From: a virus | Length of the DNA stretch: 24,178 bases | Strand: one strand, 5' to 3' | Virus record (IMG/VR): IMGVR_UViG_3300042507_001612 | Span: 1-24,178 of that record | In this document: in pieces, positions 1-22,647 of the stretch | Layout: each line of letters opens with the position of its first letter | Position numbering within the stretch: position 1 is the stretch's first letter | The notes under the pieces: model-generated | What the model saw: the letters and a program-made list of their open reading frames with translations, nothing else | Told to the model about the DNA's origin: nothing | Database searches by the model: none | Translations under genes and position numbers: made by a program

Positions 1-722
1 CCTTGAGCACCTGTGGCTCCTTGAGGACTTGCCCCTTGAGCGCCCGTGGCTCCTTGAGCGCCAGTGGCTCCTTGAGCGCCTGTGGCTCCTTGAGGACTTG
101 CCCCTTGAGCACCTTGAGCCCCTGGGGGTCCGGCTGGACCCGCATTCCCTTTGTCTCCTTGTGGACTTGCACCTTGAGCGCCCGTAGCTCCTTGAGCCCC
201 TGTATTACCTGCGTCTCCTTGTGGACTTGCCCCTTGAGCGCCCGTAGCTCCTTGAGGACCTTTGGCTCCTTGAGCACCTGTGGCTCCTTGAGGACTTGAA
301 CCTTGAGCCCCCGTGGCTCCTTGAGGACCTTTGGCTCCTTGAGCACCAATAGGGCCCGAAACTGCCGCCCCTTGAGCGCCAGTAGCCCCTTGTGGACCTT
401 TGGCTCCTTGAGCACCTACGGCTCCTGAAGTAGGTGCTCCTTGAGCGCCAGTAGCCCCTTGAGGACCTTTAGCTCCTTGAGCACCTGTGGCTCCTTGTGG
501 ACTTGCCCCTTGAGCTCCTTGAGGACCTTTGGCTCCTTGAGCACCCGTGGCTCCTTGTGGACTTGCTCCTTGAGCACCCGTAGCGCCAATGCCACCTTGT
601 GGACCTTTGGCTCCTTGAGCTCCTTGAGGACCAGTGCCAGTAGGACCCGTATTACCTTTTGCTCCTTGAGCGCCCGTAGGACCGGTAGGACCTTTGGCTC
701 CTTGAGCACCGGTAGGACCTGT
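1..722 (-). repeat. Collagen-like Gly-X-Y coding repeats
   Basis: The DNA is a run of degenerate 9-nt units encoding Gly-X-Y, with longer super-repeats around [12 protein letters not shown] and [10 protein letters not shown]. Codons for the same residue vary (GGA, GGT, GGC, GGG), so the amino-acid pattern is conserved better than the DNA. The array continues past position 1. Confidence 0.9.
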
Positions 723-1124
723 GTTGTGAACTAATAAATTACCTACAAAATAATTGTGGTCGGGTTCTACTTCAATACTAATAAAAGAAATATCACCTTC
801 TACTAATTTAAGTGAGGTGATTTCTAATCCGTTAAGGAGTGATTTTTTTAAGTGGTATACATCTAAAGGATTTAACCACTCACCATCTTGTGAATAGAAA
901 AGTGATTTGATGGATGTTTTTAATTGTGAACCATCACTAAAATTTATGTGGTAGTATTCACTATCAAAACCGATGTGTTTAGAAACAACTTTACCTTCAC
1001 TAATAGTTTGGGCTTGAGTATTGTAACTTTTTACTACATCGCCAAGTTGGATATCTTTGATAGGGATTAGTATTCCATTAACCTCTAACAAAGTATCTTC
1101 GTATAATGCGTGTATTAAACTCAT
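1..1124 (-). CDS. Hint (intein-like) domain fused to collagen-like fibre protein, 3' end outside window
   Basis: ATG at 1124 is preceded by AAAGG, and the frame stays open for 374 codons to the window edge, so the C-terminus is missing. Residues 6-134 read as a Hint/mini-intein fold. Block A is [12 protein letters not shown], followed by [10 protein letters not shown], and the end is [12 protein letters not shown] followed by Thr135, which matches intein blocks F and G with the terminal His-Asn. From Thr135 on the protein is Gly-X-Y repeats ([10 protein letters not shown] type) rich in Ala, Gln, Thr and Pro. The triplets are broken about seven times by GASPQG or GSSPQG and once each by GAPTSG and GTG. 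Collagen-like stalks are known in phage tail fibres, so a fibre or virion-surface role is inferred. The Hint part has no Cys, starts with Ala, and lacks the block B His, so full splicing looks unlikely. Asn-driven C-terminal cleavage before Thr135 remains possible. It is the last gene of the fibre cluster in this window. Confidence 0.85.
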
Positions 1125-9156: not shown

Positions 9157-9312
9157 TTAACTTAAATCATCAAGTCCATTTTTAAAATCAGAAAAAAGTT
9201 TTCCTAATCCTCTTTGAGCACTTGGGGATAACTTTTTAATTTGTGATAAGTTTTTCTTAATCATTTGAGAAAACTCAACTGATAGGTCTTGTAGAACTTT
9301 AGTGTCGTTCAT
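9157..9312 (-). CDS. Small hypothetical protein (51 aa)
   Basis: ATG 9312 overlaps the stop of the 819-aa gene as ATGA, and the frame ends at TAA 9157. The protein is a charged helical 51-mer, MNDTKVLQDLSVEFSQMIKK, then NLSQIKKLSPSAQRGLGKL and an acidic tail. No membrane segment or named domain is visible. The overlap implies translation coupled to the polyprotein-like gene, so it may be a head-assembly factor or extra internal protein. It fills a 186-nt stretch that would otherwise look empty. Confidence 0.7.
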   Translation of the reverse strand: MNDTKVLQDLSVEFSQMIKKNLSQIKKLSPSAQRGLGKLFSDFKNGLDDLS

Positions 9313-11768
9313 TTTACCTTTTCCTTTACAATCCGTTCGTTTACTGATTCATAGTAAAGGTTCATCATCATATCTTTAAGTTTTGGATTTTTAAAATCAC
9401 CTTTAAACTTCTCTAATGCTCGTCTTGCTTTTAATGCATTTGTGTTAGCAACTACAAAGTGTCCTGTCTTTTCACCACCCAATCTCTTAGCCATTGATAT
9501 GGCTTGTATTTTTGGACCAACACCTTTTTGATTTCCCATAGGGTCAATCACAGTATATTTTTCTTCGTTTACTGATTCACCTAGCTTATCACTTTTAACC
9601 ATGTTGATAAATGATTTGATATCATCTTTAAGATATTTAGAAGTTTTTGTTAGTTTACCAACTTTTTTTCCATTTTTTGATATTATCATATCTTTTTCAG
9701 TTGGGGCTTCAATTAAATCATAACCACCAAAACTTGCCAATACCTTAAATTTAGCTTCGTTTACTGATTCAACTGATTCCTTTACATACTTCATAGATGA
9801 GTTAGAACCATCGGTAAAAAATACATTATCACCATCAATCATTTTTACTTTTCGTTTGAATGGTCCTTTTTTACCTAAAGCTGATTCCCAATGAGGGTTA
9901 TCAACTTTAACCATTTTACCAACTGCGATTTCTTCGTTTAGTGATTCGGTCAGTTTAAAGTAAAAATATTTTCTCATATATTCTAATGACTTTATGATAT
10001 CTTGTAATTCTCTTTTACCCTTTGGTCCAAGTTCTTCATCTCTCAAATATGCACTTAAAACTGCGTATGCACCATTTACAAACTGATATGGGTTTTCAGC
10101 TTTTACAGTATACCCAGCTTCGTTTACTGATTCACCAATTGATGTTACTTTCCAATATAATCCTTTAGTTTTTTCAGATGGTGATAATCTTCTATTGAGA
10201 GTTTCAACCTCTTTTTCAGCTTCTCTATAAGTTCTATCCAAAGATAAAGTCTTTATAAATTTGTTTGTGTTTGGGTCTACTAATGATAGTTTTACCCCTT
10301 CGTTTACTGATTCAAGTTTTAAATTTCTTTGTGCATTAACTAATCCATTAATAATAGATTTTAAACCACCTTTAACTCCATCAGTATCTTTAGCTTGAAC
10401 TCTTTTATCCAAAATTTTGGTGTTCATCTTTAAGAAGTTGATGATTGCGTTTTCAACAGCGTTCCACTTGATTTCTTCTTCGTTTAATTTTCCTTCCATT
10501 ATACCCACTGCAATATCACCAACCACAAAATCAGGTTTAGATGCATATTTCTTATTTACAATAGCAACTTTGTTATTTGGAGTTGGTTGTATAATGTAAA
10601 TTGGTAATGGTTCGGTAGCAAAAGTATATTTCATACCTAATTTCTTTAACTCACTACCCACACTCATAAATGAAGATGCTGCTTCCACTGCACCTTTAAT
10701 TTTATCCATATCAGTAGAAGAAACACCTTCGTTTACTGATTCTTTTATAGAATATTTCATATGAGATGGTGCTGATTTTTCTAATGCCTTCATAGCAATT
10801 AACAAATCACCCTTTCCTTTTCCAGATAACACTTCATACTTTTCACCTGTCTTTTCATTATGAACAAATACTTTAGCTTCGTTTACCGATTCATTGGTTA
10901 CTTTAACACCCCTAACACCTGCCCAATCAGTTTTGTCAAGAATCATTGTGGAGTGGTTGTTTAATGATTTTGCAAACTTTTCAGCATCTTCTCTACTTTT
11001 ATATCCTGCTGCTTGTGGTTTTGAAAACTTACCATCTTTTTTTTGATATAAAACATAAAATAAATTAGAATCTCTTTCTTCGTTTACTGATTCATCTGCT
11101 TTTTTACCAGCTCTTAAATCAGCCAAGTCATCAGCTTCAATGTCACCATCACTATCAACATCCAACTCTTTTTGTTTGCCTGTTAATTCTTCGTTTCGTT
11201 TGATTAAAGATGTTAGCTTCATAGACTCATTAGCGAACTCGTCTGCGTTCTTCTTGTCTTCAGCGTCTACACCGGTTACTTTATAGGATTTACCATCAAC
11301 TTCAAATGAATCATCACCATTAGCGATAGCTTTTGCTCTTTCAGCACCAAACTCATTACCTTCTTTGATTTCGTAGTATTTACCAAGAACCTCACCGATT
11401 TCATCGTAAGATGATTCTAATCTTTGTTGTAAGGTAGATACCTCTTTGATTGTGTTTGAGAAAACCTTGAATGATTCGTTCATAGATTTCATATGTCTCT
11501 GAACAGTTACTCTATCAAACCAATCACCAGTTTCTTTTAAGGTAAGGTTATTTGCGTTTTCAACAATACCTTTGATTGAATCATGGATTTCTGAAATATT
11601 ACCTTTGTGTGAAATCATTTCACCTAATTGGCGGTAAGCAGCAACAGCCTCAACAAATGCACGCTTTTCTTCTTTGGTCATTCCTTGACCTTCTTCATCT
11701 TCGCCTACATTCATCCTACGATAATCTAAATGTTGTGATTCTTTAAGTAATTGTGTTAACTTTTTCAT
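9309..11768 (-). CDS. Multidomain protein with ten S-V-N-E-type junctions, probable internal-head polyprotein
   Basis: The product has 819 aa, with AAGGATAG before ATG 11768. The N-terminus, MKKLTQLLKES, resembles a capsid-targeting peptide. Residues 1-200 are largely helical. An EF-hand or dockerin-like loop, DVDSDGDIEADDLADL, starts at 203. Junction pentapeptides end at residues 230, 297, 347, 430 (GKLNE), 490, 550, 612 (ESLNE), 671, 735 and 811. Between them lie small dissimilar segments of 50-83 aa, most beginning with a short beta-strand and ending in a helix (FYVLYQKKDGKFSKP, AKVFVHNEKTGEKYEV, EKYTVIDPMGNQKGVG). The junctions fit a gp21-type V-x-E|A/G/E rule, and the protease gene is about 0.9 kb upstream. 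The inference is a precursor cut into about ten proteins packaged in the head. Alternatively E-S-V-N-E is only a linker within one long core protein. No segment has a recognisable enzyme. Confidence 0.8.
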   Translation of the reverse strand: MKKLTQLLKESQHLDYRRMNVGEDEEGQGMTKEEKRAFVEAVAAYRQLGEMISHKGNISEIHDSIKGIVENANNLTLKETGDWFDRVTVQRHMKSMNESFKVFSNTIKEVSTLQQRLESSYDEIGEVLGKYYEIKEGNEFGAERAKAIANGDDSFEVDGKSYKVTGVDAEDKKNADEFANESMKLTSLIKRNEELTGKQKELDVDSDGDIEADDLADLRAGKKADESVNEERDSNLFYVLYQKKDGKFSKPQAAGYKSREDAEKFAKSLNNHSTMILDKTDWAGVRGVKVTNESVNEAKVFVHNEKTGEKYEVLSGKGKGDLLIAMKALEKSAPSHMKYSIKESVNEGVSSTDMDKIKGAVEAASSFMSVGSELKKLGMKYTFATEPLPIYIIQPTPNNKVAIVNKKYASKPDFVVGDIAVGIMEGKLNEEEIKWNAVENAIINFLKMNTKILDKRVQAKDTDGVKGGLKSIINGLVNAQRNLKLESVNEGVKLSLVDPNTNKFIKTLSLDRTYREAEKEVETLNRRLSPSEKTKGLYWKVTSIGESVNEAGYTVKAENPYQFVNGAYAVLSAYLRDEELGPKGKRELQDIIKSLEYMRKYFYFKLTESLNEEIAVGKMVKVDNPHWESALGKKGPFKRKVKMIDGDNVFFTDGSNSSMKYVKESVESVNEAKFKVLASFGGYDLIEAPTEKDMIISKNGKKVGKLTKTSKYLKDDIKSFINMVKSDKLGESVNEEKYTVIDPMGNQKGVGPKIQAISMAKRLGGEKTGHFVVANTNALKARRALEKFKGDFKNPKLKDMMMNLYYESVNERIVKEKVK
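9336..11093 (-). repeat. Ten interspersed copies of a 15-nt coding repeat (E-S-V-N-E)
   Basis: Coding-strand GAATCAGTAAACGAA or a close variant occurs in frame at 9336-9350, 9564-9578, 9756-9770, 9933-9947 (ESLNE), 10119-10133, 10299-10313, 10479-10493 (GKLNE), 10728-10742, 10878-10892 and 11079-11093. Seven copies are identical at the DNA level, including third codon positions, while the DNA between them is unrelated. Spacing is about 150-250 nt. Confidence 0.95.
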
Positions 11769-11779
11769 TTTAGCTATCC

Positions 11780-12631
11780 TTATTTTTTACCTTCAACAAG
11801 TTTTTCAATTTTTTCACCCATTGGTCTACCAATAGTCATTGATACATAAAATCCAATTGCGTCTACGATGTCTTTACCATCCCATTTTGCAAGAGCCGCA
11901 ATGTTTGGACCTAACTCATATTCATACATTTGTATAAGGTCCTTCTCCGCCATTGGGTCACCTTCGTATTTTGCTCTTGGAAAAAGTGATGGAACCTTCC
12001 TTGATGTTGAATGGAAGTTAGCATCAGTTAATGCACCCTGTAAAATGTACATTATTGCAAATTGGTGATTTGGACCACCTTTTCTTAAATCACCAAGTTC
12101 ACGTTCTAACATTTTGTTAACTTTTACATTTAACTGGCGGTCCATTTCATTTAATTTACCTTCGTTCATACCACTACCATATTCGTGGTAGTTTGAAGAT
12201 GCTTGTGAAATATATTCATCAGCCATAGTAATGTAACTCTGAATCCAAGCTGGAATATCTTTTTCCATCTCACCCATTTTTTGCTTCAATTCAGTAGCGT
12301 ACTTGATAATTGAATCTAATGAGTTTTGAGACATTTTCACTTCGTGGTCTTGTTCTTCGTTTACTGATTCAGAAAACATTTTAATCATTTTCCTTTGGAT
12401 AGGATTATTAGGTTTACCTACAAGTGCAGTTACAAAATCCATTTTACCATCTAGCTTACTTTTTTTAAGAAATTGGTATAATTTTTCAATATTCAACTCG
12501 TTAGTATCAACGAATTTTTGAACTGCATCGGCTCTTGTTGCAGTTAATGAAGCAATCGCTACTGCGAATTTGCTAATACCAGCATTAGTATATTTACTAA
12601 CATCTTCTTTTAATAATGACATCATTTTCAT
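11780..12631 (-). CDS. Head-region protein with S-V-N-E-type junctions
   Basis: The product has 283 aa. ATG 12631 overlaps the protease stop (ATGA), so translation is probably coupled. The N-terminus MKMMSLLKED matches the short L-L-K-E start of neighbouring head proteins. An ESVNE junction lies at residues 88-92, and GMNE|G and GKLNE|M near 153-160 look like further protease sites. These would divide it into a helical N-terminal piece, a middle helical piece (QNSLDSIIKYATELKQKMGE) and a C-terminal domain of about 120 aa (NHQFAIMYILQGALTDANFH). The function is unknown. By position between gp21 and the large polyprotein-like gene it is a candidate internal or core head protein. Confidence 0.75.
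   Translation of the reverse strand: MKMMSLLKEDVSKYTNAGISKFAVAIASLTATRADAVQKFVDTNELNIEKLYQFLKKSKLDGKMDFVTALVGKPNNPIQRKMIKMFSESVNEEQDHEVKMSQNSLDSIIKYATELKQKMGEMEKDIPAWIQSYITMADEYISQASSNYHEYGSGMNEGKLNEMDRQLNVKVNKMLERELGDLRKGGPNHQFAIMYILQGALTDANFHSTSRKVPSLFPRAKYEGDPMAEKDLIQMYEYELGPNIAALAKWDGKDIVDAIGFYVSMTIGRPMGEKIEKLVEGKK
12356..12370 (-). repeat. E-S-V-N-E coding repeat in 283-aa gene
   Basis: GAATCAGTAAACGAA on the coding strand is identical to the commonest copy in the 819-aa gene, followed by Glu-Gln. Confidence 0.9.
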
Positions 12632-13269
12632 TTTATATCTCCAAAATCACACTCACAATATCCACCCACTTCGCAGATGATATCTCTCATAAGTGTATTA
12701 ACCTTATTATAATTAGTTTGTTTTCTTTGAAGTGATTCATTAATAACCCCTTCATTTGTAGGTTTCATAAAAGCACCATGCGTTGATGGGTTAGAAACAA
12801 AGTCCCAACATATTAATTCAAAATCAGTTTCAACGGCAACTGTACCATCTTCTTTGATTTGCTTAACTGAACCCATGCCCCTTGAAGAAATACCCACAGT
12901 ACAACCAGCGTTGATTATTTCTTGCAAAATTCTACCAGTAGGCGTGTTTAAAATTTCAACTTGACCCATTACATCATCACCTTTCCAGTAAACATCACGA
13001 ATAATGTGAGATGTATTTTTTAGTTCAACCACAGACGATTCAGGATGGTCTAATTCACCATACGCCCTGTTTTCTCTGATTTCTCTACCTTTATACTTTT
13101 CAATTTCACGTTCAAGGATATTTTTTGGATAAACCCTACCATTTTGATTTGTTGAGTTGGCTCTTTGTAATACACCCGTTACAAGAAATCTACCATTTTT
13201 ATTAAGTGATTCTTTTAAGATTTGAGGTGTAATCTCAAATAAACTAACATCAATGAGTAATTGCTTCAT
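12628..13269 (-). CDS. 21: Prohead core protease, T4 gp21-like
   Basis: The product has 213 aa; T4 gp21 has 212. The segment GRVYPKNILEREIEKYKG (44-61), GELDHP with the likely catalytic His75, and GISSRGMGSV with the likely catalytic Ser (128/129) mark the phage prohead serine protease family, which shares a fold with herpesvirus assemblins. DFELICWDFVSNPSTHGAFM (149-168) completes the domain. The C-terminus carries PTNE|G and VINE|S, which look like self-processing sites of the same x-N-E type as the junctions in neighbouring proteins. The start ATG 13269 overlaps the stop of the 46-aa gene (TAATG). The role is to cleave scaffold, capsid and internal proteins inside the prohead before DNA packaging. 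Confidence 0.93.
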   Translation of the reverse strand: MKQLLIDVSLFEITPQILKESLNKNGRFLVTGVLQRANSTNQNGRVYPKNILEREIEKYKGREIRENRAYGELDHPESSVVELKNTSHIIRDVYWKGDDVMGQVEILNTPTGRILQEIINAGCTVGISSRGMGSVKQIKEDGTVAVETDFELICWDFVSNPSTHGAFMKPTNEGVINESLQRKQTNYNKVNTLMRDIICEVGGYCECDFGDIK

Positions 13270-20308: not shown

Positions 20309-22633
20309 TTACCACTTTCTACAAGACCAATAACGAGCTTTCCATCTTGGTCCTGGAGTATCACAATTGTGTCTAGCTCTAAATGATTTTCTTGCTTCAG
20401 GATTGTCTTTACGAATTCGCATCGTTCCACCTTTAGCATCACCACCTTGTCCAAAGTTTACCTTAACAACATTACCTTTGTCATTTTTAACATACACTTT
20501 GAACTTCTTAACATCACCTTGCATAATCTTACCAAGTTTTACTTTTCTACCTTGATATTCTGCCTCATTGATGTCACTTTTGTATTCAGCCATAAACTGA
20601 ACAAACTCTTTTAGGTCTTGATAGTTTTCTACATCATACTCATCAAGTATTTCTTCCTCTTCTTCTTTTAAAAAAGGTTTTGCTGCAAGATTAGAATATA
20701 CCTTACCCAATTCAGGAGTAAATCCATATTTTTCTTCCATAAAGGTTTTTACATTATGGTATTCTTCTTTGATAATCTGCTTCAAAGAATCTTTGGTTAA
20801 TTTTGATTCAGCAAGAGTTTCTTCTTTTTCTTCTTCTTCAAGTTTGTGAACCGGATATTTCTTTCCGTTGAATTCAAATTCAGTCAAACCTTCTTTTCTT
20901 GCGTTAAACAAAGCGCCTGTAAATGCATTGCCTTCGTTTACATTATCTTGAGCCAATAACTTAATTTTATCAACCACGGTTTTAACTTTTTTACCATTCG
21001 CCAACTTTAAGGTTACACTTCTACCAAATCTATCAACAACAGTAGCAGCACTATTCGCTGATGGGAAGAATACAATATCACCAATTTCAACCGATGATTC
21101 GTTTACAATGGATTCGGCTGTGCTTCTATTATCATAAACACCCTTTAACCATTTGATAGTATCTTTATCTTTTGGAAAATCTTTGTATTCTTTATAAAAT
21201 TCTTTGACAAAATCTTTAAAGTCGTTTGCTTCTTGAGCGATAATATCAATATTACTCATTGATGATTCGTTTACCGATTCACCTAATCTATCAAGCATTC
21301 CACTTACAACTTTATTTGTAATTTCGTAATTATTATCGTTAAAAGCTTTTAAAATTGCGTGATATACATTTGTACCACCTTTAACATTTTTTTTCTCTAT
21401 TTTTAGTTTTTTACCATTTTTCAATGTTACTAAAATATAGTGTGGGTTTACAAATTCATCCCAATCTTTGTAGATAGATGCCGCTTCGTTTACTGATTTA
21501 CCTTTTTTGAATTTTTTAATAAACGCCTGACGTAGTTTAGGAACGGAACCAACAGTACCTCTTTCTCCACTTATATAATGTTTAACATTATACCCATCAA
21601 TATTATTTCTATTAGCCTTCACATAATCTGATAGTTTTTCACCATCCAATCCGTTATCATCAATAAAATTTTGAGTAGCATCTTGACCTGATTGTAGGAT
21701 TCCGTGAATGTAAGCTGCATCCCTTGAAACACCCTCATTTACTGATAGTGTTAATTCATTTGGTGCGTGTTTCATTACTTCACCATTTGGTAATTCTATG
21801 TTGTAGTATTTTTCATCATCAGCACCATCTTCTTTATCTAATGACTTAACAACACCAACACCACCATGAGACATTTTTACTTTGTCACCAACTTGAAAAT
21901 GTGATTCGTTTACAACGGATTCTTCAATACCTTTTTTAGAGCGAAGTTTGTATTTTTTGTAGAGGTGGTCCATTGACTTAATGTTTTGCTTTAACTGCCA
22001 CTCATGTTCGCTATTTACTATCTTTAAACGAGCCATCAATTCTACATCACTATCAGATGCAACTTCAGCAAATTTAGGACCAATTACGAATGCTTGTTTT
22101 TTTCTATAAACATCAACATCAATACTTGCTTCATTTACTGATTCTTTTTTTGTTAAAAGATTTTTTGCAAGAAGAGAAAGAAACTTAATATCTACTGATG
22201 CAATTTGTTGTAGTTCTTGTTTTGATAATTTATTTAACATATCAACCAACCTTTTGTATGCGGGCTCCGATGGATTAATTCTATCAATATCTTTAAATGC
22301 ATATTGTAAAATACCAAGATGTGTTTTATCAAATTTTTCATCCATTTCTTCTGGACGTTTACCAAATGTTTTGTGGACTAATTTGTCAAGTTGTGTATGA
22401 AATTCAGTTTCTTGAGCATCAGTAGCTTCACTTGCACACTTTTTCCAACCACCACCAGCGTCTTTGTATTGTTTTGAAGCCCAACCATTAGCATATGCGG
22501 ATGGGTATACATCAAACTTTTTTTTCGCTTGTGATTTGTAATAAGACCACTTTGATGGGTTAGTCGGGCAGTTTTTTTCTTCTAGCCGTTCAACTGCTTC
22601 ACCTAAACGAATGTAATACTCTTTATTTTTCAT
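20309..22633 (-). CDS. Second S-V-N-E multidomain protein, probable internal-head polyprotein
   Basis: The product has 774 aa. ATG 22633 is chosen because GTGAGGT is its ribosome-binding site; a GTG four codons upstream overlaps that site. The N-terminus MKNKEYYIRLGEA resembles the T4 internal-protein targeting peptide (MKTYQEFIAEA). Residues 20-50 (NPSKWSYYKSQAKKKFDVYP, then SAYANGWASKQYKDAGGGW) are a domain familiar from phage proteins. Junctions end at 168, 243 (ESVVNE), 300, 383, 456, 512 (ESIVNE), 567 (DNVNE) and 690 (SDINE). Two segments look like SH3/KOW-type barrels: FQVGDKVKMSHGGVGVVKSL after 243 and VEIGDIVFFPSANSAATVVD after 512. The last 80 residues, ending KSFRARHNCDTPGPRWKARY then WSCRKW, are a second familiar phage domain, basic with two Cys. 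Function of the pieces is unknown; packaging in the head and release by gp21 is inferred. Confidence 0.8.
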   Translation of the reverse strand: MKNKEYYIRLGEAVERLEEKNCPTNPSKWSYYKSQAKKKFDVYPSAYANGWASKQYKDAGGGWKKCASEATDAQETEFHTQLDKLVHKTFGKRPEEMDEKFDKTHLGILQYAFKDIDRINPSEPAYKRLVDMLNKLSKQELQQIASVDIKFLSLLAKNLLTKKESVNEASIDVDVYRKKQAFVIGPKFAEVASDSDVELMARLKIVNSEHEWQLKQNIKSMDHLYKKYKLRSKKGIEESVVNESHFQVGDKVKMSHGGVGVVKSLDKEDGADDEKYYNIELPNGEVMKHAPNELTLSVNEGVSRDAAYIHGILQSGQDATQNFIDDNGLDGEKLSDYVKANRNNIDGYNVKHYISGERGTVGSVPKLRQAFIKKFKKGKSVNEAASIYKDWDEFVNPHYILVTLKNGKKLKIEKKNVKGGTNVYHAILKAFNDNNYEITNKVVSGMLDRLGESVNESSMSNIDIIAQEANDFKDFVKEFYKEYKDFPKDKDTIKWLKGVYDNRSTAESIVNESSVEIGDIVFFPSANSAATVVDRFGRSVTLKLANGKKVKTVVDKIKLLAQDNVNEGNAFTGALFNARKEGLTEFEFNGKKYPVHKLEEEEKEETLAESKLTKDSLKQIIKEEYHNVKTFMEEKYGFTPELGKVYSNLAAKPFLKEEEEEILDEYDVENYQDLKEFVQFMAEYKSDINEAEYQGRKVKLGKIMQGDVKKFKVYVKNDKGNVVKVNFGQGGDAKGGTMRIRKDNPEARKSFRARHNCDTPGPRWKARYWSCRKW
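20564..22144 (-). repeat. Eight interspersed S-V-N-E coding repeats
   Basis: In-frame copies lie at 22130-22144 (ESVNE), 21905-21922 (ESVVNE), 21734-21748 (LSVNE), 21485-21499 (KSVNE), 21266-21280 (ESVNE), 21098-21115 (ESIVNE), 20933-20947 (DNVNE) and 20564-20575 (DINE). They are more diverged than in the 819-aa gene, but most keep GTAAACGAA at the DNA level. The residue after the last Glu is Ala, Gly or Ser in all eight. Confidence 0.9.
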
Positions 22634-22647
22634 ATAATACCTCACAA

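What the first reader, a model, noticed from the sequence alone, without database searches (positions are those of the whole stretch)
1..1124. Hint (intein-like) domain at the head of a collagen-like phage fibre
Seen: residues 6-134 have intein block A and a near-perfect C-terminal block ([12 protein letters not shown] then Thr), fused directly to Gly-X-Y repeats. There is no Cys, residue 1 of the domain is Ala, and the block B His is missing. Known: without a nucleophile at position 1, splicing is impaired, but Asn cyclisation can still cut at the C-terminal junction. Inference: the domain could release the collagen stalk from its own N-terminal part, or link it to another protein, as a timed maturation step.
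Basis: partly seen in the sequence, partly recalled or inferred. Interest (0 to 1): 0.8.

Follow-up and report, generated by a model that had tools for sequence, protein, structure and literature searches.

The report
Self-cleaving head on phage collagen fibre
A group of uncultured viruses of bacteria make long collagen-like fibres whose front end is a small domain related to self-splicing proteins; it has lost the parts needed for splicing but kept exactly the parts needed to cut itself off the fibre, so it probably removes itself as the fibre matures, which has not yet been shown in the laboratory.

Summary
Residues 1-134 of the minus-strand ORF at 3-1124 form a Hint (intein-fold) domain. 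The AlphaFold2 model has pLDDT 92.6, and its best PDB matches include bacterial intein-like (BIL) domains at TM 0.85. The domain is fused directly to Gly-X-Y collagen, which the contig end truncates. In relatives the fibre is 940-1500 aa, ending in a conserved cap. Across 20 distinct homologues, residues for the first splicing step are lost: position 1 is Ala/Gly/Ser and never Cys, block B His is Lys/Asp, and F:4 Asp is Ser. Residues for Asn-cyclisation cleavage (H123, H133, N134) and Thr135 never change, despite 22 silent codon changes. Best reading: a self-cleaving N-terminal propeptide, cutting between Asn134 and Thr135. Cleavage itself is not shown. The adjacent fibre gene carries a second Cys-less Hint head. 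Its His-Asn is equally invariant, but it lacks the F:13 His and often has Pro at +1, so a purely structural role for His-Asn is not excluded. Ligation and splicing are poorly supported. In several relatives the two fibre genes are followed by a 2OG-Fe(II) oxygenase and a glycosyltransferase, suggesting a collagen-modification cassette. This is a new variant of a known kind.

The parts
3..1124 (-). Hint-collagen fibre ORF, 374 aa, truncated by the contig end (homologues 943-1503 aa)
1110..1124 (-). N-terminal flank MSLIH (residues 1-5); Ile4 and His5 invariant in the family
   Evidence: alignment A4
723..1109 (-). Hint domain, residues 6-134
   Evidence: AF2 pLDDT 92.6; Foldseek to BIL2 6y75 and BIL4 2lwy, TM 0.85; profile to PDB
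1107..1109 (-). Ala6 = intein position 1 (Ala/Gly/Ser in the family, never Cys)
906..917 (-). Block B remnant Thr70..Lys73 (B:7 Thr drifts to Ser/Ala/Leu; B:10 His replaced by Lys/Asp)
777..779 (-). Ser116 at the F:4 position (Asp in class 1, Cys in class 3 inteins); invariant Ser in the family
   Evidence: residue roles from PMC4031507
756..758 (-). His123 = F:13 His, invariant
   Evidence: 0 aa changes, 4 silent
723..728 (-). His133-Asn134 = G:6-G:7, invariant; predicted cleavage after Asn134
   Evidence: 0 aa changes, 12 silent
720..722 (-). Thr135 = +1 residue, invariant in this family; predicted new N-terminus of the fibre
   Evidence: 0 aa changes, 6 silent; Thr is 31.5% of collagen Y positions
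3..722 (-). Collagen Gly-X-Y stalk (Pfam PF01391, E 1e-21), cut by the contig end
1146..1766 (-). Small structural protein encoded directly upstream of the fibre; unnamed family, synteny kept in relatives

Best explanation
The N-terminal 134 residues are a Hint (intein-fold) domain reduced to its second half-reaction. It cannot form the N-terminal (thio)ester or splice, but it is kept under strong selection as a single-turnover asparagine lyase. After folding, His123 and His133 help Asn134 cyclise to a succinimide, which breaks the Asn134-Thr135 bond and frees the collagen fibre with an N-terminal Thr-Gly-Pro. The domain thus acts as a self-removing propeptide, perhaps keeping the very long repetitive chain soluble or in register during folding and trimerisation. 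Shown here: the fold, the loss of the step-1 residues, the strict conservation of the step-3 residues, and the architecture and synteny. Inferred: that cleavage occurs, its timing and its purpose.
For: Fold: AF2 pLDDT 92.6 and TM 0.85 to BIL2 and BIL4. Among 20 distinct homologues, the residues needed for step 1 (Cys1, His B:10, Asp F:4) are lost, while His F:13, His G:6, Asn G:7 and Thr+1 have zero replacements against 22 silent changes; nearby residues 129 and 132 change 9 and 5 times. In L062 and L074 even the block A Asp-Thr-Leu core is gone, yet [19 protein letters not shown]|TGPTG is intact. The search patterns did not include His-Asn, so its invariance is not a sampling effect. Positional contrast: C-terminal Hints on other repeat-stalk phage proteins (L024, L025, L028, L217, L219, L226) all keep Cys1 and the block B Thr-x-Glu-His motif, while N-terminal ones lose Cys1 but keep His-Asn. 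Residue roles are from PMC4031507.
Against: There is no direct evidence of cleavage. The adjacent fibre's Hint head also keeps His-Asn with 0 changes, yet mostly has Asp at F:13 and Pro, Ala, Val, Asn, Ser, Asp or Phe at +1, so His-Asn may be held for another reason. In class 2 inteins, loss of B:10 or F:4 also reduced C-terminal cleavage (PMC4031507). C-terminal Hints keep His-Asn although only 5-13 residues follow it. Conservation of Ile4, His5 and Leu7 is not explained by cleavage.
Confidence: 0.6

Rival explanations
1. Structural cap: the Hint fold has been co-opted as a permanent, non-cleaving N-terminal knob that caps, trimerises or anchors the collagen stalk to the virion. His-Asn is kept for packing or hydrogen bonding.
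For: The second, adjacent fibre carries an even more eroded Hint head with invariant His-Asn but without F:13 His and often with Pro at +1. Conservation of MxxIHxL before and at position 1 suggests a structural role for the N-terminus. Phage fibres usually attach by the N-terminus (general knowledge).
Against: A pure scaffold should not hold three catalytic residues and the +1 Thr without a single replacement while neighbouring positions drift. Hint families without a C-terminal reaction, such as hedgehog and Vint, lack the His-Asn end (general knowledge). A conserved C-terminal cap exists that could serve as anchor instead.
Confidence: 0.27
2. Residual splicing: Thr135 attacks the His5-Ala6 bond directly (class 2-like, or via Ser116 at F:4 in a class 3-like way), so the product carries MSLIH joined to TGPTG.
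For: Ala1 and a nucleophilic, invariant +1 Thr; invariant Ile4-His5 flank; invariant Ser at F:4.
Against: Class 2 inteins need Cys+1, His B:10 and Asp F:4, and have Ser at G:6 (PMC4031507). Here these are Thr, Lys/Asp, Ser and His. The class 3 residue CysF:4 is absent. Gaining a 5-residue leader has no obvious use.
Confidence: 0.05
3. Ligation or cross-linking: after C-terminal cleavage the freed fibre end, or the Hint succinimide, is joined to another virion protein.
For: Type A BIL domains can ligate fragments by aminolysis (PMC4031507). These phages have two Hint-headed fibres side by side.
Against: BIL ligation needs an N-terminal thioester at Cys1, absent here in every member. No partner site was identified.
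Confidence: 0.05
4. A decaying intein fossil with no function.
For: Block A and block B catalytic residues are lost.
Against: Strict purifying selection on the C-terminal half across lineages about 40% identical, and one copy in every phage of the group searched.
Confidence: 0.03

Closest known systems
Bacterial intein-like (BIL) domains, type A (C. thermocellum BIL4, 2lwy; Tetrahymena BIL2, 6y75/6tmm)
   Same: Hint fold (TM 0.85), size about 134 aa, C-terminal His-Asn, host protein not a conserved enzyme
   Different: BILs form the N-terminal thioester (Cys1) and lack a +1 nucleophile; here Cys1 is lost in all members and +1 is an invariant Thr
Class 2 inteins (KlbA type)
   Same: Ala at position 1, nucleophilic +1 residue
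   Different: His not Ser at G:6; Thr not Cys at +1; B:10 His and F:4 Asp missing
Pretoxin HINT (Pfam PF07591) of bacterial polymorphic toxins
   Same: Best Pfam match for the single sequence; Hint thought to release what follows it
   Different: Cargo is a collagen fibre, not a toxin; the domain sits at the protein's very N-terminus and lacks Cys1; below Pfam's gathering score
C-terminal Hint of phage collagen/tail proteins (Erwinia phage Y3, Yersinia phage fHe-Yen9-02, Alcaligenes phage Afa-NA1)
   Same: Phage tail protein combining collagen repeats and a Hint domain
   Different: Hint at the C-terminus, Cys1 and the block B Thr-x-Glu-His motif intact, followed by only 10-12 residues
Auto-cleaving intramolecular chaperones of phage fibres (e.g. 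endosialidase-type C-terminal domains)
   Same: Domain removed by self-cleavage after fibre folding
   Different: Different fold, different chemistry (Ser/Lys), C-terminal; comparison from general knowledge, not tested here

Membership tests
Hint/intein fold superfamily | Horseshoe all-beta Hint fold of about 130-140 aa | tested here: met
   AF2 pLDDT 92.6; PDB matches are inteins and BILs, TM 0.80-0.85 for the best; profile hits to PDB
Class 1 intein | Cys1 or Ser1 with Thr B:7, His B:10 | tested here: not met
   Ala/Gly/Ser at 1, never Cys; B:10 Lys/Asp
Class 1 intein | Asn G:7 with His G:6 and Cys/Ser/Thr at +1 | tested here: met
   His133-Asn134-Thr135 invariant
Class 2 intein | Ala1, Cys+1, Ser G:6, His B:10, Asp F:4 | tested here: not met
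   Only Ala1 is met (criteria from PMC4031507)
Class 3 intein | Cys at F:4 | tested here: not met
   Ser116, invariant Ser in the family
BIL type A | C-terminal His-Asn | tested here: met
BIL type A | Cys1 thioester and no +1 nucleophile | tested here: not met
   Ala1 and Thr+1
BIL type A / C-terminal cleaving Hint | Cleavage activity in a purified precursor | not testable with these tools
   needs expression
Pfam PT-HINT | Score above the gathering cut-off 27.7 bits | tested here: not met
   22.0 bits for the window domain
Collagen-like phage fibre (PF01391) | Gly-X-Y repeats over the Pfam cut-off | tested here: met
   76.5 bits against cut-off 27.2

The most novel reading that the evidence does not exclude
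Phages have repeatedly turned Hint domains into one-sided self-processing ends for long repetitive stalk proteins (collagen, Thr-Pro repeats, polyproline). Cys-less Hints at the N-terminus cut only their own C-terminal junction, and Cys1-bearing Hints sit at the C-terminus. In the phages studied here, the processed collagen is also hydroxylated and glycosylated by adjacent phage-encoded 2OG oxygenase and GT2 enzymes, making a viral procollagen-like maturation pathway.
Probability: 0.3. Interest if true: 0.8.

Novelty: new variant of a known kind. Interest (0 to 1): 0.6.

Why it matters
If it cleaves, this would be a natural Hint family specialised for Asn-cyclisation cleavage alone, used as a self-removing propeptide on a viral collagen. 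It would give a clear case of inteins being domesticated for virion maturation, a compact cysteine-free C-cleaving tag for protein work, and a way to study how phages fold collagen chains of over 1000 residues. A search of open-access full texts found no description of a Hint-collagen phage fibre, though subscription journals were not covered.

Tried and rejected
No isolate carries the family: tblastn against 50,697 phage records found only unrelated inteins and Hints, mostly inside terminases or at the C-termini of tail proteins, and none for the second head or the TP-repeat heads. Cellular relatives: only one distant hit, with an intact Cys and no collagen (L056). Flavobacterium phage immuto, a close isolate by terminase and capsid, has neither collagen nor Hint, and Microcystis phage Mel-JY01 has collagen without Hint. 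The AF2 model of the second Hint head was poor (pLDDT 59.4, 7 sequences) and was not used. Dead-intein and splicing readings were rejected on conservation and residue grounds.

Full report
OBSERVATION. The window is a 24,178-base viral contig. Its genes read on the minus strand: terminase, portal, prohead protease, T4-like major capsid protein, PhoH, then a run of structural proteins ending in the fibre gene at 3-1124 (portal and protease named from sequence and from the matching gene order in annotated relatives). Terminase and capsid are nearest to Microcystis phage Mel-JY01 and Flavobacterium phages immuto (57-59% and 54-58% identity). The fibre ORF starts at 1124 and runs off the contig. 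It has 374 aa and no Cys.

WHAT IT IS. A single-sequence Pfam search is weak (PT-HINT, E 2e-4, below cut-off). A family profile matches BIL domains and gp41-1 inteins in the PDB (E 1e-9 to 1e-7). AlphaFold2 with 20 homologues gives pLDDT 92.6. Foldseek ranks the Tetrahymena BIL2 domain first, with C. thermocellum BIL4 and DnaB/DnaE mini-inteins close behind, TM 0.80-0.85. It is therefore a Hint domain. About 30 other viral contigs carry the same N-terminal Hint plus collagen, in phages of about 167-187 kb where long contigs exist, one copy per phage. Complete fibres have open frames of 943-1503 residues, ending in a conserved cap of about 45 residues.

WHICH CHEMISTRY IS LEFT. Residue roles come from a review of protein splicing (PMC4031507). 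Step 1 uses Cys1/Ser1, Thr B:7, His B:10 and Asp F:4. Step 3 uses Asn G:7, assisted by His G:6 and His F:13. In 20 distinct homologues, position 1 is Ala, Gly or Ser and never Cys; B:7 is Thr, Ser, Ala or Leu; B:10 is Lys or Asp; F:4 is Ser. In contrast His123, His133, Asn134 and the +1 Thr135 have no replacement on the tree but 4, 8, 4 and 6 silent codon changes. Positions 129 and 132, close by, change 9 and 5 times. The most divergent members (L062, L074) have lost even the block A Asp-Thr-Leu, yet keep the whole C-terminal block. The search patterns that found most members did not include His-Asn. One search's N-terminal pattern did require Gly/Ser/Ala at position 1, but the patterns and most of those put no requirement there and still gave no Cys. 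Thr is 31.5% of collagen Y positions, so its invariance at +1 is also unlikely to be accidental, although the sequences are related and a formal probability was not computed.

SECOND HEAD AND THE CAUTION IT BRINGS. The gene just downstream of the fibre, outside this window, encodes another collagen fibre with its own Cys-less N-terminal Hint head, a Cys-rich linker and then collagen. Its His-Asn is equally invariant (0 replacements, 7 silent changes), but F:13 His is mostly Asp and the +1 residue is highly variable and often Pro. A freely variable +1 fits cleavage without splicing. Pro at +1 and loss of F:13 do not favour efficient cleavage, although F:13 His is dispensable in some inteins (PMC4031507). 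So either that head also cleaves, or His-Asn is kept for structure. This is the main reason for 0.6 rather than a higher confidence.

WIDER PATTERN. Other phage stalk proteins carry Hints too. N-terminal, Cys-less heads occur on Thr-Pro repeat stalks (L224, L227, L228) and on a polyproline protein (L084). C-terminal Hints with intact Cys1 occur on collagen or other repeat proteins (L024, L025, L028, L217, L219, L226). The reaction facing the stalk is the one retained at the N-terminus; C-terminal copies keep both halves. This was a small hand-read sample.

MECHANISM. Best reading: a self-removing propeptide acting by Asn134 cyclisation. Shown: fold, residue loss and retention, architecture. 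Inferred: cleavage, timing and purpose. Splicing or ligation is unlikely, because the N-flank is 5 residues and no thioester-forming residue exists. The unexplained invariance of Ile4 and His5 needs a structure.

LITERATURE. Open-access full-text searches found no paper on a Hint-collagen phage fibre or on phage collagen with a prolyl hydroxylase. Papers outside the open-access set were not searched.

Noticed in passing
L093:6177-10757 (also L002, L006, L010, L015, L016, L036, L067, L098, L105, L110, L122): Adjacent second collagen fibre with its own Cys-less N-terminal Hint head, Cys-rich linker and a similar C-terminal SGS end; His-Asn invariant, +1 hypervariable.
   Followed up: partly
L093:10809-12149; L096:6484-7461; L122:4699-6381: A 2OG-Fe(II) oxygenase (PF13640, prolyl-hydroxylase-like) and a GT2 glycosyltransferase directly follow the collagen fibre genes. 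By position the oxygenase also follows the fibre in G002 and G006, but not in G003 or G004. Possible collagen hydroxylation and glycosylation cassette.
   Followed up: partly
window 9309-11768 (-) and 20309-22645 (-): Two proteins near the head genes contain 8 and 6 copies of an (E)SVNE-like motif between small segments, with single copies in 11780-12631 and in the likely prohead protease 12628-13269. They look like polyproteins cut at repeated sites by the prohead protease.
   Followed up: partly
L224, L227, L228 (2974-6462): N-terminal Cys-less Hint heads (GYVVHN|V or GYIVHN|D) on Cys-rich plus Thr-Pro-repeat stalk proteins in other phage contigs.
   Followed up: no
L084:8276-9190: Degenerate N-terminal Hint (HN|QGGG) in front of a polyproline stretch, in a 193 kb viral contig.
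   Followed up: no
L006, L011, L017, L018, L020, L021, L022, L069, L091, Hint domain loop: A subset of the Hint heads carries a Cys-rich insertion (e.g. CGCGDCKC), possibly metal-binding, in the loop after the block B region.
   Followed up: no
L162:2-2599 (PP395634.1): Microcystis phage Mel-JY01 has a collagen-like open frame on the + strand that the record annotates as hypothetical genes on the minus strand; it has no Hint head that could be seen.
   Followed up: partly
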